From the NCBI GenBank assembly GCA_003554605.1, contig PWGU01000070.1, positions 1 to 45,015 of the forward strand: a stretch of 45,015 bases of DNA. The letters run 5' to 3'. Shown here piece by piece: positions 2,099-39,345 of the stretch. The DNA comes from Halorubrum sp. Lineage in GTDB: Archaea > Halobacteriota > Halobacteria > Halobacteriales > Haloferacaceae. The notes beneath the pieces are model-generated. The model worked only from the letters and a program-made list of their open reading frames with translations. It did no database searches and was not told where the DNA came from. The position numbers and the translations under genes are program-made. Position 1 is the first letter of the stretch; every line of letters begins with the position of its first letter.

Positions 2099-2166
2099 GT
2101 GGTGGCTCGGTGGAAGTTTTCATCACAAGGGGCTAAGAGGGGGTAACTGATCGTCATCGCCACCAC
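2099..2166 (+). repeat. Copy Y of the repeat, closed by inverted ends GTGGTGGC...GCCACCAC
   Basis: GTGGTGGC at 2099-2106 and its reverse complement GCCACCAC at 2159-2166. Confidence 0.8.
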
Positions 2167-2167
2167 A
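2139..2167 (+). promoter_or_regulatory. 29-bp conserved upstream element (copy A), 23 bp 5' of TATAAAAG
   Basis: GGGGGTAACTGATCGTCATCGCCACCACA, identical to 8753-8781; TATAAAAG at 2190-2197. Confidence 0.7.
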
Positions 2168-2189
2168 TCCAGAACAGCGCGTCATGATA

Positions 2190-2197
2190 TATAAAAG
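2190..2197 (+). promoter_or_regulatory. TATA box-like element
   Basis: TATAAAAG in an AT-rich context 23 bp after the 29-bp element. Confidence 0.55.
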
Positions 2198-2394
2198 ACC
2201 CATGTTTGTGACTTTTTATCGCAAGCGGTGATGGTGACCATTCGTGTTCGTGGAGCGTTCGTTCGTGTGCTACACCGCGACCGAATAGAGTCCCCGGGAG
2301 TACGCCAACTGTGCCACTGTGCAATGTTCGGAATACGATCCGGTGGATACGTCGTCGATTGTATGGAACGAAATGGCTCGTTTGTTACATTATC

Positions 2395-8611: not shown

Positions 8612-8752
8612 TATCGAGGCTGTTGGCGAACTGTCTCAATGCGGCGAGGAAAGACCACCGGAGCAACACGATCTGCACGATCAACAATAGCGGTGAATTT
8701 TAACTTCAAAACGGCTAGGAAATGGATCTATTAGTAGAAATCGCGTTGCAGT

Positions 8753-8781
8753 GGGGGTAACTGATCGTCATCGCCACCACA
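8753..8781 (+). promoter_or_regulatory. 29-bp conserved upstream element (copy B), 23 bp 5' of TATAAAG
   Basis: Identical to 2139-2167; TATAAAG at 8804-8810 has the same spacing as copy A. Confidence 0.7.
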
Positions 8782-8902
8782 CACAGATTATCGGGTTGTT
8801 TGGTATAAAGGAATCGAGATAGCGACTGCGCAATGGCAAATACGCGGGGAAAATCCCTCACAGCGGCCATCCACGGCCATCACCGAAACGGTTAATCCAC
8901 CG

Positions 8903-18812: not shown

Positions 18813-19259
18813 GTGACCGGCCGTGATGTCGCGGCAGATCGCCACGGGGCGGCGTCGGCGTTTGCCGACCGCATCGCGTCACTCGCGGCGCAGGCGGCCG
18901 CCACCCGCGAACGGTTCGACCCGAGTGCGTTGGACGGACAGGACGTCGAGGCGGTCGAACTCGCCGGTGCGTCCGTCACCGATACCGAGGAGGCGGCGCT
19001 CGTCGCCGCCCGGGACGGGCTCGGGCCGGTCGTGGGGCTGTACGTCGAGGCCCGGACCGCGGCCGAGCCCGTCCGGTTTTCGGCGACGGAGTTGCGACAG
19101 CTCCATGCCGCCACCAGCGACTGGCTCGCCCTGTATGCCCGGTGTCACGGCGTCGAGACGGACCCCGATGTCACGGTTCGGGAGGCCGCCGAGGCGCTCG
19201 TCGCCACCCACGACATCACCGACGTCGCCGCGTTGTTGACGGGGCTGCACCGCCGCTAG
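18813..19259 (+). CDS. Hypothetical protein of the etf cluster
   Basis: 148-aa GTG-start ORF, 6 nt after fixC; no recognised family. Confidence 0.6.
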   Translation: MTGRDVAADRHGAASAFADRIASLAAQAAATRERFDPSALDGQDVEAVELAGASVTDTEEAALVAARDGLGPVVGLYVEARTAAEPVRFSATELRQLHAATSDWLALYARCHGVETDPDVTVREAAEALVATHDITDVAALLTGLHRR

Positions 19260-19331
19260 GCCGCCGCCGGACCCTCAAGCGACGAAGTCACATGGTAAAT
19301 CATTAAGTATTGGTGAGTGGTATTGTCTACC

Positions 19332-20066
19332 ATGCAAATCTCACAGCACATCTCCATCGAGAACCGGGATCGGAAGGACATCTACGGCTATATCGAACAA
19401 CGGGGCTCCGTCCCTGCCGACCAAGTGCGTCGGGAACTCGGCTTCGACGAGCAGGCGTTCGGGCACCACCTCGCGGTGTTGCGGCGCGACGGCTACGTCC
19501 GGCGGGTGGGCGACGACCTGGAGATCTCCTTCGATACTGACAACGGCGTTACCCACGAAGGCGACGATACACGCTATACGATCCGAACCGCTCGGCAGTC
19601 AGATCTCGGCGGGCTCATCGGCGTGTTGCGGCAGGTCGCCGAGGACGGGACCTACATCGAGGCGGAGGCGGTCGCCGACCTGCTCGATTTCGAGGAGGCC
19701 CTTCACCGGAACAACGAGGTGAGCTCTCGAATGTTCTTCGTCGCCACCGTCGAGGACCAGGTGGTCGGTTGGGTGCATCTCGATCTCCCGGAGGCGGACA
19801 AACTGAAACACACCGCACGGCTCACCGTCGGGGTAATGGACGAATACCGCGGGCAGGGTATCGGCGAGAAACTCCTCGAACGGGGGGCCACGTGGGCTCG
19901 CGAGCGGGGCTTCGAGAAGCTGTATAACAGCGTTCCGGTGACCAACGAGACGGCGATGGCGTTCCTCGAATCACACGGGTGGCGTCGGGAGGCGGTGAGA
20001 CAGGATCACTACCGTATCGACGGGGAGTACGTCGACGAGGTGATGATGGCCGTCGACCTCGTGTGA
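19332..20066 (+). CDS. GNAT N-acetyltransferase with N-terminal winged-helix-like domain
   Basis: N-term DIYGYIEQRGSVPADQVRRELGFDEQAFGHHLAVLRRDGYVRRVGDDLEI; C-term GNAT motif A LTVGVMDEYRGQGIGEKLLERGATWARERGFEKLYNSV. Confidence 0.88.
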   Translation: MQISQHISIENRDRKDIYGYIEQRGSVPADQVRRELGFDEQAFGHHLAVLRRDGYVRRVGDDLEISFDTDNGVTHEGDDTRYTIRTARQSDLGGLIGVLRQVAEDGTYIEAEAVADLLDFEEALHRNNEVSSRMFFVATVEDQVVGWVHLDLPEADKLKHTARLTVGVMDEYRGQGIGEKLLERGATWARERGFEKLYNSVPVTNETAMAFLESHGWRREAVRQDHYRIDGEYVDEVMMAVDLV

Positions 20067-28771: not shown

Positions 28772-28890
28772 GAGGCCTCAGTCCTCCCCAGCCTCAGCCG
28801 GAGGGGCCGCCGGACTGCTCGGCGGCCCCTCCGGCCTCCCTCGCGCTCGGCTCACGCCTTTATAAAGGCGCTCGCCGGAGCGCGCCGATC
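28772..28890 (-). repeat. GC-rich structured repeat, copy 1
   Basis: On the minus strand: GCGCTCCGGCGAGCGC, palindrome CGCCTTTATAAAGGCG, CCGAGCGCGAGGGAG, 16-bp perfect stem-loop, GAGGCTGGGGAGGACTGAGGC; homologous to 36024-36140 in inverted orientation. Confidence 0.85.
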
Positions 28891-29014
28891 GCTTCCGGCG
28901 AGTCACGGTCGCGTTTCCCACTCCGCTCACGGTCCTCGTCGCCCATGGGTGAATTAAAAAGTTGAATTATGAAGCGCGAGGCTCTGGACGGCTTCCGGTG
29001 TAAGTGAAGTTGTC

Positions 29015-29167
29015 ATGAGCTTCGCCTCTCACACGACGGATGAGGTCTCCGATGAGCAGTTCGGCCGCGAGCTAAAGGTGATCGGTCCGATCTGGATCAC
29101 GCTGTTTTTCGTCTGGACCTACCTCCTCTTGAACTACGGCCATCTCGCGGCCGGGCTCATCGGCTGA
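29015..29167 (+). CDS. Small (50 aa) putative single-TM membrane protein
   Basis: MSFASHTTDEVSDEQFGRELKVIGPIWITLFFVWTYLLLNYGHLAAGLIG; TATA-like GAATTAAAAAGTTG about 60 bp upstream; absent from the ORF track. Confidence 0.65.
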   Translation: MSFASHTTDEVSDEQFGRELKVIGPIWITLFFVWTYLLLNYGHLAAGLIG

Positions 29168-29238
29168 GCGAACGGGCCCCGGGATAACGTCACGTCGTCG
29201 ACCCCTTCCGAGCCTTTTAGGCCGATCCCGCGACAGGG

Positions 29239-31146
29239 GTGGGTGTGGACCCCGATCGGATCCCCACGGAGTTTCCGGCCCCGAGCTTCCGCGGCGCACA
29301 GGAGCGGGCGCTCGCGGACATCCGGGACGCCTTCGCCGCCGGCAACCGGGTCGTGCTCGTGCGCGCGCCAACCGGCAGCGGGAAGTCGTTGCTCGCGCGG
29401 TCGGTGATGGGCGCGGCCCGCGAGATTGCCGATGCCGCCCCGAGCGAGGCGACCGGCGCGTACTACACCCCCCCACAGGTCTCCCAACTCGACGACGTCG
29501 CGACCGACGACCTCCTCGACGATTTTAACGTGATCCGCGGGAAATCGAACTATAACTGTATCCTCCCCGGCGAGCACGACACGCCCGTCAACCGCGCACC
29601 CTGCGTCCGCCAGCGCGGCTTCGACTGTTCGGTTCGGCACCGCTGTCCGTACTTTTCGGACCGTGCGATCGCCTCCTCGCGACGGTTCGCGGCGATGACG
29701 CTCGCGTACTTCATGCAGACCGCGGGCTCGGAGGTGTTCCGCAAACGCGACGTGGTCGTGATCGACGAGGCCCACGGGCTCGCGGAGTGGGCGGAGATGT
29801 ACGCGACCATCGAACTCCGTCCCGACCGGGTGCCCGTGTGGGACGACGTAGGCGTGCCCGACGTCGAGCGCGACGCGGCCGCCGACGAGGACGCCCTCGA
29901 CCGGACCGCACGGTTCGTCGAGACCCTCCGCGACGTCGCAAAGCGCGCGAAGGACGACCTCGTCGGCCGCCCGGAGTTGAGCCGCGAGGAAGTCGCCCGG
30001 CGGGACCGGCTCCAGGAGCTGATCGGCGAACTGGGCTGGTTCCTTGAGGACTACCGCGATCACGAATCGCCGACGACGTGGGTCGTCGACCAGCCGGACG
30101 GCGAGGGCGGCGCGATCACGATCAAGCCGCTCGATCCGGCACGCTACCTCAAACACACCGTCTGGAGCCGGGGGAACCGGTTCGCGTTGCTGTCGGCGAC
30201 CATCCTCTCGAAGGAGGCGTTCTGTCGCGGCGTCGGGTTGGACCCCGGGAGCGTCGCGCTCGTCGACGTCGAACACACCTTCCCGCTCGAACACCGCCGG
30301 CTCTACGACGTAACACAGGGGTCGATGACCTACGAGCACCGCGACGAGACGATCCCGCGGATCGCCCGGCTCATCGTCCAGCTCATGGCGGAACACCCCG
30401 ACGAGAAAGGCCTCATCCACGCGCACTCGTATGCGATCGCCGGTCGACTCGTGGAGAAACTCGTCGAGTTCGGCGTGGCCGCGCGGGTTCGGCGACACAC
30501 CAGAGAGAACCGCGACGCGGAGTTGGAGGCGTGGAAGGCGAGCCCCGACCCCGAGGTCTTCGTCTCGGTGAAAATGGAGGAGGCGCTCGATTTAAAGGGC
30601 GACCTGTGCCGCTGGCAGGTGATCTGTAAAGCGCCGTATCTGAATACGAACGACTCGCGGGTCGCTCGACGCCTCGAGGAGGGCCAATGGTCGTGGTATC
30701 ACCGCGCGGCGCTTCGCACGGTCATTCAGGCGTGTGGGCGGGTCGTGCGCGCGCCCGATGACTACGGCGCGACCTACCTCGCGGACGACTCCCTGCTCGA
30801 CCTGTTCGACCGCGCCGCGGCGGACACCCCGCCGTGGTTCCGCGAGCAGGTCGAGGCGATGACTGCCCCCGAACTACCGGCGTTCGACCCGGCCGCCGCG
30901 CTCGCGGGCATCGACGCGACGCCGTCCGGTCCGGGGCGCGGTTCCCGGCGCACTCGCGGGAAGACGGCCGGTTCCGGTGGACGCTCCGGAACGGGGGCCG
31001 CGGCGGAGGGCACCGGGGGAGGAGCGTCCCGGAGCCACACCACCGGATCGGCCGACAACACCGGTGGTACCACCCGAACACGCACCGAGGAGGACGCGGA
31101 GCGCCGACGAAACCATCCCCTCTCGGACGTGTGGGGGGACGGCTGA
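29239..31146 (+). CDS. ATP-dependent DNA helicase, XPD/DinG-like superfamily 2 with Fe-S cluster
   Basis: Walker A VRAPTGSGKSLLARS; four Cys in YNCILPGE...APCVRQRGFDCSVRHRCPYF; VVIDEAHGLAEW; LLSATIL; QACGRVVRAPDDYG; low-complexity C-terminal tail. Confidence 0.9.
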   Translation: MGVDPDRIPTEFPAPSFRGAQERALADIRDAFAAGNRVVLVRAPTGSGKSLLARSVMGAAREIADAAPSEATGAYYTPPQVSQLDDVATDDLLDDFNVIRGKSNYNCILPGEHDTPVNRAPCVRQRGFDCSVRHRCPYFSDRAIASSRRFAAMTLAYFMQTAGSEVFRKRDVVVIDEAHGLAEWAEMYATIELRPDRVPVWDDVGVPDVERDAAADEDALDRTARFVETLRDVAKRAKDDLVGRPELSREEVARRDRLQELIGELGWFLEDYRDHESPTTWVVDQPDGEGGAITIKPLDPARYLKHTVWSRGNRFALLSATILSKEAFCRGVGLDPGSVALVDVEHTFPLEHRRLYDVTQGSMTYEHRDETIPRIARLIVQLMAEHPDEKGLIHAHSYAIAGRLVEKLVEFGVAARVRRHTRENRDAELEAWKASPDPEVFVSVKMEEALDLKGDLCRWQVICKAPYLNTNDSRVARRLEEGQWSWYHRAALRTVIQACGRVVRAPDDYGATYLADDSLLDLFDRAAADTPPWFREQVEAMTAPELPAFDPAAALAGIDATPSGPGRGSRRTRGKTAGSGGRSGTGAAAEGTGGGASRSHTTGSADNTGGTTRTRTEEDAERRRNHPLSDVWGDG

Positions 31147-31231
31147 GTGCGGCCACGCGGATGGGCGCGCTGAGAAGGACGGTCGCGCCGCTCACGGGAA
31201 CGGGACAGTCCGCGTGGGTGGAGTCTTCACC

Positions 31232-31315
31232 CTACAGAAGGGTCACTCCCCACGCGATCATGGAGGACACCATGATGAACGCGAAGAACAGCGCGATGAA
31301 CTGTTGTCTGTTCAT
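31232..31315 (-). CDS. 27-aa hydrophobic microprotein (putative)
   Basis: ATG...TAG on the minus strand: MNRQQFIALFFAFIMVSSMIAWGVTLL; TATA-like GATATAATG (minus strand, ~31364-31372) about 50 bp upstream. Confidence 0.55.
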   Translation of the reverse strand: MNRQQFIALFFAFIMVSSMIAWGVTLL

Positions 31316-31394
31316 ATCCGACAATGAGCCGTCAAGGGACATAATTCCACCGAGCCGCGGTGAATGGCATTATATCAACCGACCGAGAAGCCGA

Positions 31395-31421
31395 GATACA
31401 TAATACCATATAAGGTGTATC
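31395..31421 (+). promoter_or_regulatory. Inverted repeat GATACA-N15-TGTATC spanning a TATA box
   Basis: GATACAtaataccatataaggTGTATC upstream of the UPF0175 gene; embedded CATATAAGG. Confidence 0.55.
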
Positions 31422-31475
31422 ATGGCCCTCTAACAATTAGTAACCTTCATAATCTTTCGCTTCAGAGGAGGGGGT

Positions 31476-31667
31476 ATGGCAACGAACGGGCTGTCGAGTG
31501 CGCTGACGCTGTACGGTGCGCGAACGCTCACACTGTCGCAAGCGGCCAAGCAGGCCGGCCTCAGCGAGGCCGAATTCATCGACCAACTCCAGCGCCGCGG
31601 GATCGAGGTAACGGAGTCCGAGCGGGTCGCCGCGCGCGAAGCCGACCAGACCGTCCGGGCGGACTGA
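31476..31667 (+). CDS. UPF0175-like small protein (antitoxin-type HTH)
   Basis: SALTLYGARTLTLSQAAKQAGLSEAEFIDQLQRRGIEV matches the UPF0175 pattern; strong SD AGGAGGGGG. Confidence 0.75.
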   Translation: MATNGLSSALTLYGARTLTLSQAAKQAGLSEAEFIDQLQRRGIEVTESERVAAREADQTVRAD

Positions 31668-31700
31668 CGGGACCACCGGGAAGCGACGGGCATCGACCGC

Positions 31701-31741
31701 CGCCCGCCGGATGCCGGGCAATGCCGGGCATCCGGCGGGCG
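31701..31741. terminator. Strong hairpin between convergent genes (candidate bidirectional terminator)
   Basis: CGCCCGCCGGATGCC-gggcaatgccg-GGCATCCGGCGGGCG, 15-bp perfect stem. Confidence 0.5.
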
Positions 31742-31823
31742 GAACATACCTGTTATCTCGACATATACGTCTACTCGAAGGGTTGCGTGCTGCACGGGCC
31801 GTCCGCCTGTTCGGTATCCGTAC

Positions 31824-32933
31824 TCACTCCGGGTCCGGGACGAGGTGGACGCGCCCGTCGTGTTTGATCGCGAGGACGGTCTCGGCATCGGGATCGAAAA
31901 ACGTCGGCCGCGGGACGGTCGTCGCTGCGTACGTCTCTGGGTCGAGGATCTGAACCGCGTGTTCGTCCTCCACGGTGACGACGGTCGTCTCCGTGGCGTC
32001 GTCGCGGTCACCGATCCGGGTCGCCTCGGGGGCGTCGCCCTCCTCGTAGGCCGAGGTGTACGGTTCGCCGGTGGCGAGACGGATCCCCTGCACCCGGTCG
32101 TTCGATCCCGTCACGAGCACCGGTCCCTCGTCGTCGTCCGGGTCGATGATCTCGTCGGGGGCATATCGTGGGAGCCGGATCGCGAAGGTGACGCGGTACA
32201 CCTCGTTTCCGTCGCCATCCTCCGTGACGAGCGTCGGATACGACTCGAAGCTCCCGCCGAGCACGTCGGTGATCCGGCCGGCGACGTTCTCCGCGAGCCG
32301 GTTCGAGGAGAGTTTGATATCGGGCCCATCATCGGTCTCTTTGATCTCCGTGATGAACGCCTCCCGGTCGCCTTTCGCCTCCTGTTTCGCGACGTACGAC
32401 TCGGCGATGGACACCGCTTCGGTACGCTCCGCGGCGGTGAGTTCACGCTCGTCGGCACGGACCTGTACGACCCCGGCGTAGTAGCCGCCCGCGATCCGCC
32501 CACAGCGGTCACAGCTTCCCCGGGAGACCATCACCGGTACCATCACCTCCGCGGTCCGGCGTGTCCCGCGGACGATCCCGGAGAATCGGCAATGCATCCG
32601 GATCGTGTTCGCATCGACCTGTTCGGGCTCGACGCCCCACTCCACGTCGGTGGCGTCGACGTGAACGCCGAGCGCCTCCGCGACTTCCTCAACCGCGATG
32701 TCCGTGTAGTCGCGCGCGCCGACGTCCCGCCACGACTCGCCGCGACGGACCGCCCCGCAGCCGGCACAGACGAGCACCTCGATCCGATCCGGTGCGTCGA
32801 CGAGGTCGAAGTCGGCAAAATAACAATCGTCACACAACAGCGCCGTTCGTCCGCGTGGCCGTCCCGGAAGCGGCTCCGCTCGGTCGGGCACCGGCTCGCC
32901 ACAGCGGGGGCAGAAGTCGCGTGACTCGCTCAT
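31824..32933 (-). CDS. NMD3-family protein (ribosome biogenesis)
   Basis: FCPRCGEPV...[61 protein letters not shown]. Start placed at MSES (32933) rather than the track's 33398. Confidence 0.88.
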
Positions 32934-33060
32934 TGTGGAGGAGTACGCCGCTGGATCGTTTAAACCGCCCGAAGCGGGATCGGCGACCGCTCGCGGGGTG
33001 CTAGACGGGTGCGACGGTGGCTCCGAAATCATTTTTCGGCCGGACCGTGAATGGGCGTCC

Positions 33061-33411
33061 ATGAGCGGGAATCCAGACGACGAACGGCTCGCAGAACTGC
33101 GCGAAAAGAAGATGCAAGAGCTGCAGGAACGGGCCCAGAGCGACGGTAACGAGGAGGCCCAACAGGAGGCCCAAGAGCGCGCGAAAGCCCAACAGGAGGC
33201 CGTCCTCAAACAGCACCTGACCGATGGCGCACGGCAGCGGCTCAACGCCGTCGAGATGTCGAAACCCGAGTTCGCAAAGCAGGTGAAACAGCAGGTCGCC
33301 GCGCTCGCACAGAGCGGCCGGGTGCAGGGTCGCATCGACGAGGACCAGATGCGTGACCTGTTGAAGGAACTGCAGCCGGAGCGCAAGAGCTTCGACATCC
33401 GGCGGCGGTAG
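33061..33411 (+). CDS. DNA-binding protein, TFAR19/PDCD5 family
   Basis: [15 protein letters not shown]...[40 protein letters not shown]. Confidence 0.92.
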
Positions 33412-34005
33412 ATGGAGCTCGCGCTTCTGTACAGCGGCGGGAAGGATTCCTCGCTGGCCGCCCTGCTGCTCGACCGTTTTTATACCGTCCGGTGTGTGAC
33501 CGGGACGTTCGGGCTCACCGACGACTGGAAACACGCCGAGCGTGCCGCCCGCGAGCTCGAGTTCCCGTTCGAGCGGGTCGATCTGGATCACGCCGTCGCC
33601 GAGGAGGCCGCGGAGATGATGCTCGCGGACGGCTATCCCCGCAACGGGATCCAACGGATACACGAACACGCCTTGGAGACGATCGCCGGGCTCGACGTCG
33701 ACGCCGTCGCCGATGGCACCCGGCGCGACGACCGCGTCCCGACGGTCTCTCGGGCACAGGCACAGAGCCTGGAGGACCGACACGGCGTCGACTACATCTC
33801 GCCGCTCTCGGGGTTCGGTCGACATGCCGTCGACCGGCTCGTCGAGGCGACCTTCGAGGTCGAACAGGGGCCGAGCGAGGAGATCACCAAGGCGGACTAC
33901 GAGGGGGAGATCCGGACGCTCCTCGCGGAGACACACGACGAGGCGGTCGTCCGCGACGTGTTTCCCGAACACGATCAGACGTACGTCCACGGCCGGGTCG
34001 AGTGA
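33412..34005 (+). CDS. PP-loop ATPase (alpha-hydrolase-like)
   Basis: ALLYSGGKDSSLAALLL PP-loop; ATG immediately follows the PDCD5 stop. Confidence 0.85.
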   Translation: MELALLYSGGKDSSLAALLLDRFYTVRCVTGTFGLTDDWKHAERAARELEFPFERVDLDHAVAEEAAEMMLADGYPRNGIQRIHEHALETIAGLDVDAVADGTRRDDRVPTVSRAQAQSLEDRHGVDYISPLSGFGRHAVDRLVEATFEVEQGPSEEITKADYEGEIRTLLAETHDEAVVRDVFPEHDQTYVHGRVE

Positions 34006-34117
34006 GCAGTCACGCGATATCGATTCGTTATAGAGGGGGCCGGGGACGTTCAGATTCTTTATATATCGAAGCGGGGGCAGCCGCCGCGCATTTATGTACT
34101 GAGTAAATAGAGCCGCC

Positions 34118-34480
34118 ATGACCAACTGGCGTGCGGTCGGCTACGGGTTCATCGTCATGATCATCGCCGGCCTGTTGGCGACGTTCGCGCCCGTGATCGG
34201 CCACATCGGCGCGGGGCTCATCGGCGGGTTCGTCGCGGGCTACGTCGCCGGCGGTGGGTTGCTCTCGGGCGGCTGGCACGGCCTGCTTGCGGGTTCGGTG
34301 AGCGGGATCATCCTCACCCTGATCCTCGCGGCCTTCGGGGGGCTCGTCGGGCTGATCGGCGGCCCGCTTGGGGGCCTCCTCGGCGGGGCCGGCGTGCTCG
34401 TCATCGGCCTGTTCCTCACCGCCCTGTTCGCGCTCGACGCCGCGCTCGCGGGGATGATCGGCGGGATCCTCGGTGACTGA
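34118..34480 (+). CDS. Small multi-TM protein, DUF5518-like
   Basis: 120-aa Gly-rich membrane protein (HIGAGLIGGFVAGYVAGGGLLSGGWHGLLAGSVSGIIL); TATA-like TTTATATATC about 60 bp upstream. Confidence 0.8.
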   Translation: MTNWRAVGYGFIVMIIAGLLATFAPVIGHIGAGLIGGFVAGYVAGGGLLSGGWHGLLAGSVSGIILTLILAAFGGLVGLIGGPLGGLLGGAGVLVIGLFLTALFALDAALAGMIGGILGD

Positions 34481-34543
34481 CCGGGACCGCACCGACGGGG
34501 AGAAAAGCGTGCTTTCAAGCGGACGCTCGCCAAACCCGCGTAT

Positions 34544-35866
34544 ATGTACGAGGGACTCAAAGGGTTTCGTGACATCTATCCCGGCGAGCAGTCGGCGCGG
34601 CGGTCGGTGACCGACGCGGTGGAGGGGGCCGCCGCGAGCTACGGGTTCCGCGAGGTCGCGACACCCGCGTTGGAGCGGACGCAGATGTACGTCGATAAAT
34701 CCGGCGCGGAGATCGTCGACGAGCTGTACGCTTTCGAGGACAAAGGCGGCCGGGAGGTCGCATTGACGCCGGAGCTGACGCCGACGGTCGCCCGGATGGT
34801 CGTCGCGAAGGGCCAGGAGCTCTCGAAGCCGATCAAGTGGATGTCGACGCGGCCCTTCTGGCGATACGAGCAGGTCCAACAGGGCCGGTTCCGCGAGTTC
34901 TACCAAACGAACATCGACATCTTCGGCTCCGATGCACCGGAGGCGGATGCCGAGGTCCTCGCGGTCGCGGCCGATGCGCTCACGAGCCTCGGGCTCACCG
35001 GCGAGGACTTCGAGTTTCGCGTCTCCCACCGCGACATCCTCGGCGGGCTGGTGCGGGCGCTCGCGGCGGACCCGGATGCGGTCGACACGGCCGCCGCCAT
35101 CCGCGCCGTCGACAAGCGCGCGAAGGTCGACGAGGGCGAATATCTCGGCCTGCTGACCGACGCGGGGCTCGACCGGGAGGTCGCCCGCGAGTTCGACGAC
35201 CTGATCACGGGCGTCGAAACTCCCGCCGACCTCGATGCGGTCGCGGCCGCCGGCGGCGAGGACGTCGCGGCCGCCGTCGAGAACCTGAGCGCGGTCCTTG
35301 CGGCCGCCGACGACTTCGGTGCCGGCGAGTTCTGTGAGATCTCGCTCACCACGGCGCGGGGACTCGATTACTACACCGGCGTCGTCTTCGAGTGTTTCGA
35401 TTCCACCGGCGAGGTCTCCCGCTCCGTTTTCGGCGGCGGGCGCTATGACGACCTGATCGAGAGCTTCGGCGGCCAGCAGACCCCCGCCGTCGGCGTCGCG
35501 CCCGGCCACGCCACCCTGAAGCTGCTCTGTCAACGTGCCGGCGTCTGGCCCGAGGAGACGCTCTCGACGGACTACTACGTGCTCTCAGTCGGCGACACCC
35601 GCGCGGAGGCGGCCGCCGTCGCCCGCGACCTTCGGGCCCTCGGCGACGACCTCGTGGTCGAAGCGGACGTGTCCGATCGCTCCTTCGGGGCACAACTCGG
35701 CTACGCCGACTCGATCAACGCCGAGACGGTCGTCGTCGTCGGCGAACGCGACCTCGAAAACGGCGAGTACACGATCAAGGACATGGAAAGCGGCGCGGAG
35801 ACGACCGTTCCGGTCGAGGAGTTCCCGCCGGAGTCGGGCCGGCCGACCTACGAGGACTACGAGTAG
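34544..35866 (+). CDS. hisS: Histidyl-tRNA synthetase
   Basis: LKGFRDIYPGE; LTPELTPTVARMV; PFWRYEQVQQGRFREFYQTNIDIFG; ARGLDYYTGVVFE; FGGGRYDDLI. Confidence 0.97.
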   Translation: MYEGLKGFRDIYPGEQSARRSVTDAVEGAAASYGFREVATPALERTQMYVDKSGAEIVDELYAFEDKGGREVALTPELTPTVARMVVAKGQELSKPIKWMSTRPFWRYEQVQQGRFREFYQTNIDIFGSDAPEADAEVLAVAADALTSLGLTGEDFEFRVSHRDILGGLVRALAADPDAVDTAAAIRAVDKRAKVDEGEYLGLLTDAGLDREVAREFDDLITGVETPADLDAVAAAGGEDVAAAVENLSAVLAAADDFGAGEFCEISLTTARGLDYYTGVVFECFDSTGEVSRSVFGGGRYDDLIESFGGQQTPAVGVAPGHATLKLLCQRAGVWPEETLSTDYYVLSVGDTRAEAAAVARDLRALGDDLVVEADVSDRSFGAQLGYADSINAETVVVVGERDLENGEYTIKDMESGAETTVPVEEFPPESGRPTYEDYE

Positions 35867-35981
35867 GGTCAGCCCTTTTTAACCGGCTGAAGCGCTGTTG
35901 GAATCCGCGACACCTGCTGTGTGTTGAGCGCTGGTGGTTGGCAGGCGGGACACAACGGGTGAGCCCAAACTCGATCGTTTA

Positions 35982-36020
35982 CTTATAACCCCCACCGAGC
36001 GGTGACGAGGTCGCTTATAA
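35982..36020. repeat. CTTATAA-N25-CTTATAA, left pair
   Basis: CTTATAA at 35982 and 36014. Confidence 0.7.
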
Positions 36021-36023
36021 GCC

Positions 36024-36140
36024 ACCTCCGGCAGTCGGCGCGCTCCGGTGAGCGCCCGGAGGGCGCGACACCGAGCGCGAGGGAGCCCACGGCTGGCGTC
36101 TCCGCCAGCCGTGGCGAGGCTGGGGAGGCCTGAGGCCGCG
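36024..36140 (+). repeat. GC-rich structured repeat, copy 2
   Basis: GCGCTCCGGTGAGCGC, CCGAGCGCGAGGGAG, 12-bp perfect stem CCACGGCTGGCG-TCTC-CGCCAGCCGTGG, GAGGCTGGGGAGGCCTGAGGC; inverted relative to copy 1. Confidence 0.85.
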
Positions 36141-36218
36141 GTGCGGGTGTGAGTACGAGTCCGGGTGTGGGTCCGAGTGCGAGTGCAGGCGTGAGTACGG
36201 GTTTGAGTGTAAGTGCAG
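36141..36218. repeat. Degenerate 6-bp tandem array (13 units, GTGYGA/GTRCGG-like)
   Basis: gtgcgg gtgtga gtacga gtccgg gtgtgg gtccga gtgcga gtgcag gcgtga gtacgg gtttga gtgtaa gtgcag. Confidence 0.85.
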
Positions 36219-36282
36219 CGACGGCATTCGATCCGCGCCTCTCGCTCGTCGCTCCACCGAATACCCCGACTTGCCCTCTCCA

Positions 36283-36321
36283 CTTATAACAAACCTCACG
36301 ACCGCTCATCACTGCTTATAA
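36283..36321. repeat. CTTATAA-N25-CTTATAA, right pair
   Basis: CTTATAA at 36283 and 36315; same 32-bp period as the left pair. Confidence 0.7.
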
Positions 36322-36486
36322 ACAACCCAACCAACCGATCCGAGCAACCAACCGCTCAATCGCCTCCCCCATCGACCGGCTTGCGGACGAACGAATATCT
36401 CAACGAAGCGGATTTCAACAAAGCCCGGTACGAGAAAACCCGGCCGCATCGGGGGCATTGATTAGCGTGGTCGCCAACTGAACCAC

Positions 36487-38145
36487 ATGGATCCGGATCT
36501 CGACCGATTTACCTCACGTCGATCGACCGTCTATGGACCGCGTGGCGTCGTCGCGACGAGTCAACCGCTCGCGAGCGAGGCGGGCATCTCCGTCCTTCGC
36601 GAGGGCGGCAACGCCTTCGACGCCGCGGTGGCGACGGCCGCGGCGCTCAACGTGGTGGAGCCGACCTCGACGGGGCTCGGCGGCGACGTCTTCGCGCTCT
36701 ACCGGACCGCCGAGGGTGAGGTCGGCGCGATGCGTGCCTGCGGCGGCGCACCGGCGGAGGCGACGATCGAGAACGTCCGCGGGGCGCTCGAAGCCGCCGA
36801 GGATATCTCCTCGTACTACCCGGAGGACGGCGGCTACGCCGTCGATGAGAGCCAGGACGCCGGGATGCCCTTTTATGGGCCCCACACCGTCACGGTCCCG
36901 GGAACGGCCCGTGGGTGGGAGGCGACCGTCGAGGAGTTGGGCCGGCTCAGTCTCGGCGACGTGCTCCAGCCGGCGATCCGCTTCGCGACAGAGGGCTTCC
37001 CCGTCTCGGAGGTGATCGCCTCCCACTGGGCCGGCGCGGAGGAGCTGTTCACCGACGATCACGCCCGCGAGGCGTTCCTCGATGACGGAAAGGCACCCGG
37101 CGTCGGTGAGGTCGCCACCCTCCCGCGGCTCGGCGCGTCGATGCAGCTGATCGCCGAGGAAGGCGCGGACGCCGTCTATGAGGGCGAGATCGCCGACGCG
37201 ATCGTCGAGGAGGTGCGCTCGAAGGGCGGGTTCATGAGCCACGCGGATCTCGCCGACTTCGAAGTCGAGTGGCCCGAACCCGTCTCGACGACGTACAACG
37301 GCGCGGAGGTGTACGAACTGCCGCCGAACAACCAGGGGCTCATCGCGTTGGAGGCGCTCAACATCGCGAACGAGGTTGACGCGGGCGAACACCCGTACGA
37401 CTCCCCAGAGCGGGTACACGCCTTCGCTGAGGCGATGAAGCTCGCGTTCCACGACGGCCACCGGTACATCACGGACCCGGAGTTCGAGGAGCATCCGCCG
37501 CTCGGTTCAACCGAGTGGGCGAAAACGCGCGCCGCGGAGATCGGCGACCGGGCGAACCACGGCGTCACCTTCGGCGTCCCCGACGCGAACGCCGAGGACG
37601 CCGACACCGTCCTGCTCACCGTCGCCGACGACGAGGGCAACGTCGTCTCCTACATCAACTCCCGGTTCGCCGGCTTCGGCTCCGGGCTCGTCGCCGGCGA
37701 GACCGGCATCGCCCTCCAGAACCGGGGAGCGTCGTTCTCGCTCGACCCCGACCCCCCGAACCGGCTCGAACCCGGCAAGCGGCCGTTCCACACGCTGATC
37801 CCGGCCGTCGTCAAACTCGATGAGAACGACTGGGCGGCCTTCGGCGTCATGGGCGGCTATATGCAGCCACAGGGCCACGTGCAGGTCATCTCCAACCTCG
37901 TCGACTACGGGATGCCGTTACAGCGCGCGCTGGATGAGCCACGGTGGCGCTACCGGGAGGGTGGCGAGTTGGCGGTCGAGCCCCACTTCGACTCGGCCGT
38001 CGCCGCCCGCCTCGTGCGGAAGGGTCACGAGGTCGCCATGCTCTCGCCGGTCATGTTCGGCGGCGCACAGATCGCGCGTAACAACGACGGCGTCCTCTCG
38101 GCGGCGACCGAACCCCGAAAGGACGGCAACGCGCAGGGGTACTGA
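36487..38145 (+). CDS. ggt: Gamma-glutamyltransferase family protein
   Basis: GVVATSQPLASEAGISVLREGGNAFDAAVATAAALNVVEPTSTGLGGDVFALY; ADTVLLTVADDEGNVVSYINS; GFGSGLVAGETGIALQNRG. Confidence 0.93.
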   Translation: MDPDLDRFTSRRSTVYGPRGVVATSQPLASEAGISVLREGGNAFDAAVATAAALNVVEPTSTGLGGDVFALYRTAEGEVGAMRACGGAPAEATIENVRGALEAAEDISSYYPEDGGYAVDESQDAGMPFYGPHTVTVPGTARGWEATVEELGRLSLGDVLQPAIRFATEGFPVSEVIASHWAGAEELFTDDHAREAFLDDGKAPGVGEVATLPRLGASMQLIAEEGADAVYEGEIADAIVEEVRSKGGFMSHADLADFEVEWPEPVSTTYNGAEVYELPPNNQGLIALEALNIANEVDAGEHPYDSPERVHAFAEAMKLAFHDGHRYITDPEFEEHPPLGSTEWAKTRAAEIGDRANHGVTFGVPDANAEDADTVLLTVADDEGNVVSYINSRFAGFGSGLVAGETGIALQNRGASFSLDPDPPNRLEPGKRPFHTLIPAVVKLDENDWAAFGVMGGYMQPQGHVQVISNLVDYGMPLQRALDEPRWRYREGGELAVEPHFDSAVAARLVRKGHEVAMLSPVMFGGAQIARNNDGVLSAATEPRKDGNAQGY

Positions 38146-38292: not shown

Positions 38293-39345
38293 ATGAAGCG
38301 GTTCCTCAGGTACGTCCTCTATCGGGAGCTCTACCGCTGGATCCGTAACGTAGGCAAAGACAGCGGGGGTTCCTCTTCGGGCCGAACACAGGCCACACAG
38401 CCCCGGTCAAACCGGCGTAGCGCCTCGACCCAGCCGATCGAGGAGGGACCGATCGAGGGGCTCGACGAGTTGAAATCCGTCCTCCAGCGGATGGATCCAT
38501 ACGACTTTGAGCACTTCATCGCGGCGCTCTGGGAGCGGATGGGATGGGAGACGAGCGTCTCATCCGAGAGCGCCGATGAAGGCGTCGACGTCACGGCCAG
38601 AAAGGAGTCACCGTATCCGCAGACGCTGCTCATCCAGGCGAAGCGGTACGGGCCGAACACGACCGTCGGATCGCCGGACATCCAGCAGTACGCAAGCTTG
38701 AGACACCAGTATAACGGGGTCGACAAGGTCCTCGTCGTCACCACCAACGAGTTCACCGGACAGGCGAAGGACCTCGCCGACCGGCTCAACGTGAAGCTCA
38801 TCGACGGCGACACCCTCGCGCGACTGATCGTCGACCGGGAGGCGCTCGATCTCGTGGCCGAGTTCCTCGATTTCGTGGAGACCATCGAGGAGCACGAACG
38901 CGAGGACGATCCCGCGGTGGATGGAGACGAGTATGCCGGACACGAGCCCGAACACGCCGAAGAGCCCGCCGATCGACCCACCGAGAGCACGCCCACGAAG
39001 GACCCCCAACAGCGACAGGGCCCGCCCCCGTCGACGATCCCGCAGCGGGCCGTGTTGCTCGCGATCCCGGGCTGGCTGGTCGCGTTCTTCGGCGTGACCG
39101 CCATTCCGGAGACGATCTGGGGGCTGCTCTTTTTCGGCGTCTGGTTCGGGCTCCCGATCGCGATCTTCCTCGACGCGAGACGCGTCCGCGAGCACGCCGA
39201 CTGGCCGAAGCGCACGTGGGTGTACGTGCTCACGTCGTTCGTCTGGCTGCTCGCGATCGTCCCGGCCGCGGTGTATCTCTGGCGACGGCGATCGATAGGC
39301 GAGGAGGCGAAAAGCCGCGGCGACCCCGGTGGTACATCCGTATGA
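38293..39345 (+). CDS. Mrr-like PD-(D/E)XK nuclease with C-terminal TM helices
   Basis: DFEHFIAALWERMGWETSVSSESADEGVDVTARKESPYPQTLLIQAKRYGPNTTVGSPDIQQYASL; C-terminal hydrophobic segments (VLLAIPGWLVAFFGVTAI, IWGLLFFGVWFGLPIAIFL, WVYVLTSFVWLLAIVPAAVYLW). Confidence 0.88.
   Translation: MKRFLRYVLYRELYRWIRNVGKDSGGSSSGRTQATQPRSNRRSASTQPIEEGPIEGLDELKSVLQRMDPYDFEHFIAALWERMGWETSVSSESADEGVDVTARKESPYPQTLLIQAKRYGPNTTVGSPDIQQYASLRHQYNGVDKVLVVTTNEFTGQAKDLADRLNVKLIDGDTLARLIVDREALDLVAEFLDFVETIEEHEREDDPAVDGDEYAGHEPEHAEEPADRPTESTPTKDPQQRQGPPPSTIPQRAVLLAIPGWLVAFFGVTAIPETIWGLLFFGVWFGLPIAIFLDARRVREHADWPKRTWVYVLTSFVWLLAIVPAAVYLWRRRSIGEEAKSRGDPGGTSV

What the first reader, a model, noticed from the sequence alone, without database searches (positions are those of the whole stretch)
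28772..36140. Inverted pair of GC-rich repeats with conserved flanks but swapped, perfectly paired stems
Copy 1 (28772-28890, minus) and copy 2 (36024-36140, plus) share GCGCTCCGG[CT]GAGCGC, CCGAGCGCGAGGGAG and GAGGCTGGGGAGG[CA]CTGAGGC in the same order. Between the last two blocks each carries a different perfect hairpin: GCCGGAGGGGCCGCCG/CGGCGGCCCCTCCGGC (16 bp, loop GACTGCT) in copy 1 and CCACGGCTGGCG/CGCCAGCCGTGG (12 bp, loop TCTC) in copy 2. Preserved pairing with changed sequence implies selection on the fold, or a transposition mechanism needing a hairpin. Similar GC-rich motifs recur in haloarchaeal genomes to my recollection, but I know no described function.
Basis: partly seen in the sequence, partly recalled or inferred. 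Interest (0 to 1): 0.75.

Follow-up and report, generated by a model that had tools for sequence, protein, structure and literature searches.

The report
Haloarchaeal repeats with interchangeable DNA hairpins
Two GC-rich repeats in this salt-loving archaeon belong to a large, apparently undescribed family of roughly 120-320 bp noncoding elements found in every Halorubrum genome checked, in which short sequence blocks stay fixed while the hairpins between them are replaced whole, even at the same chromosomal site in related species, nearly always keeping both arms matched.

Summary
The two hairpins are the only perfect ones with arms of at least 11 bp and loops up to 10 nt in the 45-kb window. 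The window is from Halorubrum. The motif pair CGAGGGAG-N15..45-GAGGCTGGGGAGG occurs in 53/53 genus genomes (5-124 copies; reversed control 0), in a few other haloarchaea, and in neither phages nor (almost) plasmids. A full copy is about 320 bp: GTGG/GTCGG, hairpin P1 with a conserved tandem-GA mismatch, CGAGGGAG, hairpin P2, CGAGGCTGGGGAGG, G-rich tract, large hairpin P3, GGGGCTTTGG; TATA-like sequences lie at both ends. At two orthologous sites (16 and 9 species) the elements share position and orientation, but P1 and P2 are different types, nearly all paired; orthologs share a P2 type no more often than unrelated copies do. P1 and P2 types are unlinked. Copies sit mostly between convergent genes and only on the main chromosome. 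Best reading: a REP/BIME-like archaeal repeat without RAYT transposase, whose hairpins are exchanged as whole cassettes (probably ectopic gene conversion) and kept because the + strand folds (G-T over A-C, 37:16, P=0.005). Mobility mechanism and function are inferred. Novelty: new variant of a known kind.

The parts
28772..28890 (-).
   Evidence: Sequence. Core homology to other copies in the genome spans about -47 to +78 around CGAGGGAG.
28844..28886 (-). Copy 1 hairpin P1: GCGCTCcGGC / GCCGAGCGC outer stem, GA/GA mismatch, CGCC/GGCG, TTTATAAA loop
   Evidence: Sequence. Pairing of the 3 bp below the GA mismatch covaries across the family: 369/411 WC against 49% shuffled.
28836..28843 (-). 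Copy 1 conserved block CGAGGGAG
28797..28835 (-). Copy 1 exchangeable hairpin P2, 16-bp perfect stem, loop AGCAGTC
   Evidence: G28836-T28796 can add a G-U closing pair.
28776..28795 (-). Copy 1 conserved block GAGGCTGGGGAGG-NN-TGAGG
36024..36140 (+).
35953..36381 (+). Extent over which copy 2 resembles other copies of its subfamily in this genome (partial hits, 73-83%)
   Evidence: query 654-1035 and 731-1082 of window 35300-36700
36014..36021 (+). TATA-like CTTATAAG about 22 bp 5' of P1
   Evidence: A TATA-like hexamer lies 14-34 bp 5' of P1 in about 44% of copies against 3.4% of intergenic background windows.
36037..36079 (+). Copy 2 hairpin P1 GCGCTCcGGTGAGCGCCC-GGA-GGGCGCGACACCGAGCGC
36078..36085 (+). 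Copy 2 conserved block CGAGGGAG
36085..36115 (+). Copy 2 exchangeable hairpin P2: G-C closing pair, one bulged C (36086), 12-bp perfect stem, loop TCTC
36116..36135 (+). Copy 2 conserved block GAGGCTGGGGAGG-NN-TGAGG
   Evidence: Downstream positions of TGAGG are 89-99% conserved in 178 copies.

Best explanation
The two repeats are members of a genus-wide, chromosomal, noncoding interspersed repeat family of Halorubrum: a REP/BIME-like composite of two to three hairpins set between invariant single-stranded blocks, without its own transposase. SHOWN: the architecture, genus-wide copy number, intergenic 3'-end/convergent-gene bias, restriction to the main chromosome in four genomes, presence/absence between species, and replacement of whole hairpins in place at orthologous sites with pairing kept. 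INFERRED: (1) hairpins are exchanged by ectopic gene conversion or recombination between dispersed copies, with the invariant blocks as homology; a likely trigger is breakage or stalling at the hairpins (e.g. Mre11-Rad50 cleavage) in polyploid, conversion-prone haloarchaeal cells; (2) an unpaired replacement is eliminated because the + strand has to fold as a single strand, either as RNA (e.g. an mRNA 3'-end or noncoding RNA element protecting or terminating transcripts between convergent genes) or as ssDNA; (3) the original spread was transposition-like but old.
For: Family: 53/53 genomes, 5-124 copies, control 0; 64/394 in the class sample, 7 of 86 genera. In-place exchange: at site L114, 16 species have the element in the same place and orientation with 10 P2 types, at site L142 9 species with 7; ortholog pairs share a type in 10% and 8% of cases, random paralog pairs in 12%. 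P1 and P2 types unlinked in one genome (MI 0.959 against 0.908 shuffled, P=0.31), and exact P2 copies occur next to different P1s. Empty orthologous sites: both window copies, site L114, site L142 (nine species with gaps of 85-130 bp against 372-545 bp in most occupied ones). No recent full-length duplicates in 36 copies of G022: best identity median 84%, maximum 88.7%. Context: 46/102 between convergent genes against 22% of all intergenic regions. Chromosome only: 35/35, 39/39, 23/23 and 7/7 copies on the largest contig; joint chance of none on the smaller contigs about 1e-8. + strand fold: P1 mismatch types G-T 7, A-C 0; P2 events 30:16; together 37:16, P=0.005; tRNA control 27:6. No transposase: Y1 absent in near-complete genomes with 55-69 copies; no half-element with an ORF between the halves in the sampled DNA.
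Against: G-T pairs are rare in P2 (1.7% against 8% in tRNA stems), so the stems are nearly perfect DNA palindromes and RNA selection alone does not explain them. P3 shows no G-T excess (181:223), though my alignment of P3 is poor. The invariant block between P1 and P2 is only about 10 bp, short for homologous recombination. No transcript evidence was available. The TATA-like box lies too close to P1 (about 20 bp) to start a transcript containing all of P1.
Confidence: 0.55

Rival explanations
1. Ordinary MITE/REP-type non-autonomous transposon: a transposase acting on ssDNA (HUH/Y1 type) recognises the imperfect hairpins and flanking tag; site differences are excision and reinsertion.
For: Presence/absence between species. 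P1 is an imperfect hairpin with a conserved mismatch, and 48% of copies have GTGG directly 5' of it, as in GT[AG]G-tagged REPs (PMC6006769).
Against: Y1 transposase absent from G015 (69 copies), G019 (60) and G029 (55). In PMC6006769 the only Y1 subclass observed in archaea is IS200. No autonomous copy in the sample, no recent full-length duplicates in G022, absent from secondary replicons, almost absent from plasmids and absent from phages. 25/25 orthologous copies keep place and orientation.
Confidence: 0.2
2. Structured RNA: each copy is transcribed on the + strand and the hairpins are selected as RNA (3'-UTR element, terminator or small RNA).
For: G-T over A-C asymmetry 37:16; covariation of the P1 triplet stem; 3'-end/convergent location; TATA-like box 5' of P1 in 44% of copies.
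Against: Low G-T content; TATA too close to P1; no Rfam match even at E<=1; hairpin loops and stems exchange freely, so no sequence-specific product is evident.
Confidence: 0.3
3. Neutral mutation bias: replication template switching at quasi-palindromes rewrites one arm from the other, keeping stems perfect without selection (mechanism as in PMC8794818).
For: Near-perfect stems with few G-T intermediates; short loops.
Against: The same P2 sequences recur in many copies and species, some with the same internal mismatch, so whole hairpins are copied between loci rather than made anew. The conserved GA mismatch in P1 is not corrected.
Confidence: 0.12

Closest known systems
REP / BIME elements (GTAG- and CGTC-tagged palindromes; PMC3733652, PMC2817692)
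   Same: Tens to more than 100 intergenic copies per genome, hairpins, preference for convergent and co-directional intergenic space, composite units, GT pairs in stems.
   Different: Unit about 120-320 bp with long invariant single-stranded blocks; the hairpins, not the blocks, vary; the tag is GTGG in only half the copies; no RAYT; archaeal.
Repetitive / double-hairpin elements and GC clusters of fungal and sponge mitochondria (PMC2800124, PMC4478555)
   Same: Modular, mobile-looking intergenic hairpins of divergent sequence but kept structure.
   Different: Organellar, and no invariant block architecture shared over a genus that I know of. The comparison rests on abstracts and my own knowledge, not on an alignment.
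MITEs of haloarchaea (e.g. Haloquadratum walsbyi, PMC3119063)
   Same: Noncoding interspersed repeats.
   Different: MITEs derive from a known IS and have terminal inverted repeats and target duplications; none of these was found here.

Membership tests
REP (GT[AG]G-tagged, RAYT-associated) | GT[AG]G tetranucleotide 0-2 nt 5' of the hairpin | tested here: inconclusive
   GTGG directly 5' of P1 in 101/211 copies (48%); the window copies have TCGG
REP (GT[AG]G-tagged, RAYT-associated) | Cognate RAYT / Y1 transposase in the genome | tested here: not met
   PF01797 absent in 11 of 53 genomes, among them G015, G019 and G029 with 55-69 copies
REP (GT[AG]G-tagged, RAYT-associated) | High-copy intergenic palindromes favouring convergent or co-directional gene borders | tested here: met
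MITE / IS-derived non-autonomous element | Terminal inverted repeats shared with an IS in the genome | tested here: not met
   The ends (GTGGCGCG... and ...GGGGCTTTGGAGGTGTTC) are not inverted repeats of each other; no copy with an ORF between the halves. Transposase families other than Y1 were not scanned.
MITE / IS-derived non-autonomous element | Target-site duplication at occupied against empty sites | tested here: inconclusive
   Sites with and without the element compared, but flanks at species distance are too diverged to call a duplication; TATA-like sequences flank both ends
Structured noncoding RNA family (Rfam) | Match to a described family | tested here: not met
   No match in the window at gathering score or in a full-length copy at E<=1
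Structured noncoding RNA family (Rfam) | Transcription | not testable with these tools
   No RNA-seq available

The most novel reading that the evidence does not exclude
A dedicated system exchanges hairpin cassettes between fixed docking blocks (CGAGGGAG and GAGGCTGGGGAGG) of over a hundred chromosomal elements, recognising the single-stranded fold rather than the sequence, so that a genus maintains a shuffled repertoire of interchangeable hairpins used for chromosome organisation or for processing transcript 3' ends.
Probability: 0.12. Interest if true: 0.88.

Novelty: new variant of a known kind. Interest (0 to 1): 0.64.

Why it matters
Interspersed palindromic repeats are usually recognised by a conserved palindrome. 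Here the palindromes are the replaceable part and the linkers are fixed, and the replacement can be followed at single orthologous sites across many species. That makes a long-standing question directly testable: whether paired stems in repeats persist by selection on a fold, by gene conversion or by template switching. It also gives an archaeal counterpart of REP/BIME elements in a genus that can be cultured, and a warning that covariation in such families is not by itself proof of a functional RNA.

Tried and rejected
IS200/IS605- or RAYT-driven REP: rejected as current driver because Y1 is absent from several copy-rich genomes. Known RNA family: none. Viral or plasmid origin: no phage match, 8 plasmid records with partial matches, 1 viral contig. 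The HF1-group intergenic repeats of Halorubrum viruses are AT-rich promoter elements and not the same thing (PMC7230728). Own promoter: a TATA-like box is strongly enriched 5' of P1 but spaced too closely to transcribe all of P1, and is equally frequent whichever way the neighbouring gene runs. Autonomous relative: no half-element pair separated by a gene. Replication-strand bias: forward and reverse copies are about equal overall, but the position list for G022 was cut after about 39 reverse hits, so no replichore test was possible. Literature: no description of this family found in eight searches; subscription papers are not held.
Full report
OBSERVATION. The two copies are present exactly as described. 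In the 45-kb window the two P2 stems (16 bp with a 7-nt loop; 12 bp with a 4-nt loop) are the only perfect hairpins with arms of at least 11 bp and loops up to 10 nt; six simulated windows gave one such hairpin in total. The window lies in a Halorubrum-genus assembly (named relatives). Copy 1 lies between divergent genes (AMP-binding ligase, minus; a conserved 50-aa ORF, plus), copy 2 between histidyl-tRNA synthetase and gamma-glutamyltranspeptidase, both plus.

FAMILY. GAGGCTGGGGAGG occurs 40 times in the held 2.5 Mb of the host genome (reversed control 0). The pair CGAGGGAG-N15..45-GAGGCTGGGGAGG occurs in all 53 genus genomes, 5 to 124 copies, both strands about equally overall, reversed control 0 in every genome. 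In a 394-genome sample of the class it is found in 64 genomes from 7 of 86 genera, with high numbers outside Halorubrum only in single genomes; Halorussus halobius is one named example. It is absent from phages, in one viral contig, and only partially present in eight plasmid records.

ANATOMY. In most Halorubrum species the unit is about 320 bp (repeat hits at query 729-1048 of L114:2600-4600, 83-90% identity). 5' to 3': TATA-like box (in about 44% of copies against 3.4% background, independent of the neighbour's orientation); GTGG or GTCGG; hairpin P1 with a conserved tandem GA/GA mismatch; CGAGGGAG; hairpin P2; CGAGGCTGGGGAGG-NN-TGAGG; a G-rich tract; GGGACTCAAAGGGGCAGCC, hairpin P3, GGCTGGGGCTTTGGAGGTGTTCACCG; and a second TATA-like box about 40 bp on. 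In the host genome the unit shared by all subfamilies is the first 117-125 bp; copy 2's subfamily is alike over a longer stretch.

HAIRPIN EXCHANGE. P2 inserts differ widely in sequence and length but are paired: 170 clean unique inserts, 94.7% Watson-Crick pairs, 91% with a stem of at least 8 bp against 60% in shuffles with gaps allowed; without gaps 57% against 3%. In P1, the three base pairs below the GA mismatch take 12 different fully complementary forms; 90% of pairs are Watson-Crick against 49% when partners are shuffled, maximum 56% in 500 shuffles. The strongest result is at orthologous sites. At the site of L114, 16 species carry the element in the same place and orientation between the same genes (flanks 78-95% identical to the query species), yet with 10 different P2 types and many P1 types. 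At the site of L142, 9 species carry 7 P2 types. Orthologous pairs share a P2 type in 10% and 8% of cases, random copies within one genome in 12%. In that genome (G022) P1 and P2 types are not associated (P=0.31), and exact P2 sequences sit beside different P1s. Hairpins are therefore exchanged as whole cassettes, independently of each other, while the site persists.

PRESENCE AND ABSENCE. The closest relative, G050 (gene 96% identical), has about 22 bp where the window has about 560 bp around copy 2 (my base-level alignment of that gap was poor). G042 has the flanking genes of copy 1 without the element. Site L114 is empty in G008 and G009 and carries a reverse-oriented, differently built copy in G032 and G036. 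Site L142 is empty in nine species with intergenic gaps of 85-130 bp. Species-level distances are too great to read target duplications. Best within-genome full-length identity in G022 is at most 88.7% in 36 copies, so full-length transposition is not recent there.

LOCATION. With a simple codon-model gene finder, 46 of 102 placed elements lie between convergent genes (22% of all intergenic regions are convergent), 14 between divergent genes, and 13 further copies fell inside predicted genes. In four genomes of two or three contigs all copies are on the largest one: 35/35, 39/39, 23/23 and 7/7, joint chance about 1e-8. Y1 transposases in G017 lie on all three replicons.

WHICH STRAND, WHICH MOLECULE. 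If only double-stranded DNA mattered, G-T and A-C mismatches would be equally frequent. P1 mismatch types are 7 G-T to 0 A-C; P2 events, counted once per sequence cluster, 30 to 16; together 37 to 16 (P=0.005); tRNA control 27 to 6. This points to folding of the + strand as a single strand, RNA or ssDNA. But G-T pairs make up only 1.7% of P2 pairs (8% in tRNA), and P3 shows no excess (with poor alignment), so RNA selection alone does not explain the near-perfect stems. Among distinct P2 inserts 69 of 173 have a central GC-NNN-GC loop, 36 of them GCGAAGC; from my own knowledge d(GCGAAGC) is an unusually stable DNA mini-hairpin, which leaves ssDNA open.

MECHANISM. Shown: cassette replacement in place, pairing kept, blocks invariant. 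Inferred: ectopic gene conversion between copies, with the hairpins perhaps provoking the breaks, and removal of unpaired outcomes by selection on the + strand fold. A transposition origin is likely but old, and no transposase could be linked. Template switching (PMC8794818) may help perfect the stems but does not explain recurrent identical cassettes or the uncorrected GA mismatch.

COMPARISON. It works most like REP/BIME elements (PMC3733652: convergent and unidirectional locations, GT pairs in stems) and looks like the double-hairpin or repetitive hairpin elements of mitochondria (PMC2800124). It is not filed as a GT[AG]G REP: the tag is in only 48% of copies, there is no cognate Y1 in several copy-rich genomes, and the only archaeal Y1 subclass in PMC6006769 is IS200. 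A 2025 survey of REPs in bacteria and archaea (PMC12306157) does not mention Halorubrum. No published description was found, but subscription literature could not be searched.

Noticed in passing
L271 (G048) element; L084 and L097 P3 region: A second, nested double-hairpin module (GTCGCCGGC..GCCGGCTGCCAGAG..CTCGCTG) with its own exchangeable stems sits inside some copies, interrupting GAG|GGAG or P3.
   Followed up: partly
own genome G000 C162:10058-10134, C46:3188-3248, C224:9559-9603; C96:39718-39794: Tandem arrays of the conserved block: 16-bp units GAGGCTGGGGAGGTGT (3-5 copies) and 32-bp units (3 or more copies).
   Followed up: no
L343 about 19200-19400 (G022) and many copies' 3' ends: The 3' tail module GCGGCTGGGGCTTTGGAGGTGTTCACCG..TTTATAAA is tandemly repeated with a period of about 57 bp.
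   Followed up: partly
window 2136-2213 and 8750-8827: An unrelated pair of 78-nt direct repeats sharing AGNGGGGGTAACTGATCGTCATCGCCACCACA.
   Followed up: no
window 38293-39342: Mrr-like restriction endonuclease gene (Pfam PF04471, E=1e-30) downstream of copy 2.
   Followed up: no
L102 (MAG labelled Verrucomicrobiales): A single pattern hit in a bacterial MAG; odd taxon, possibly misbinned or chance.
   Followed up: no
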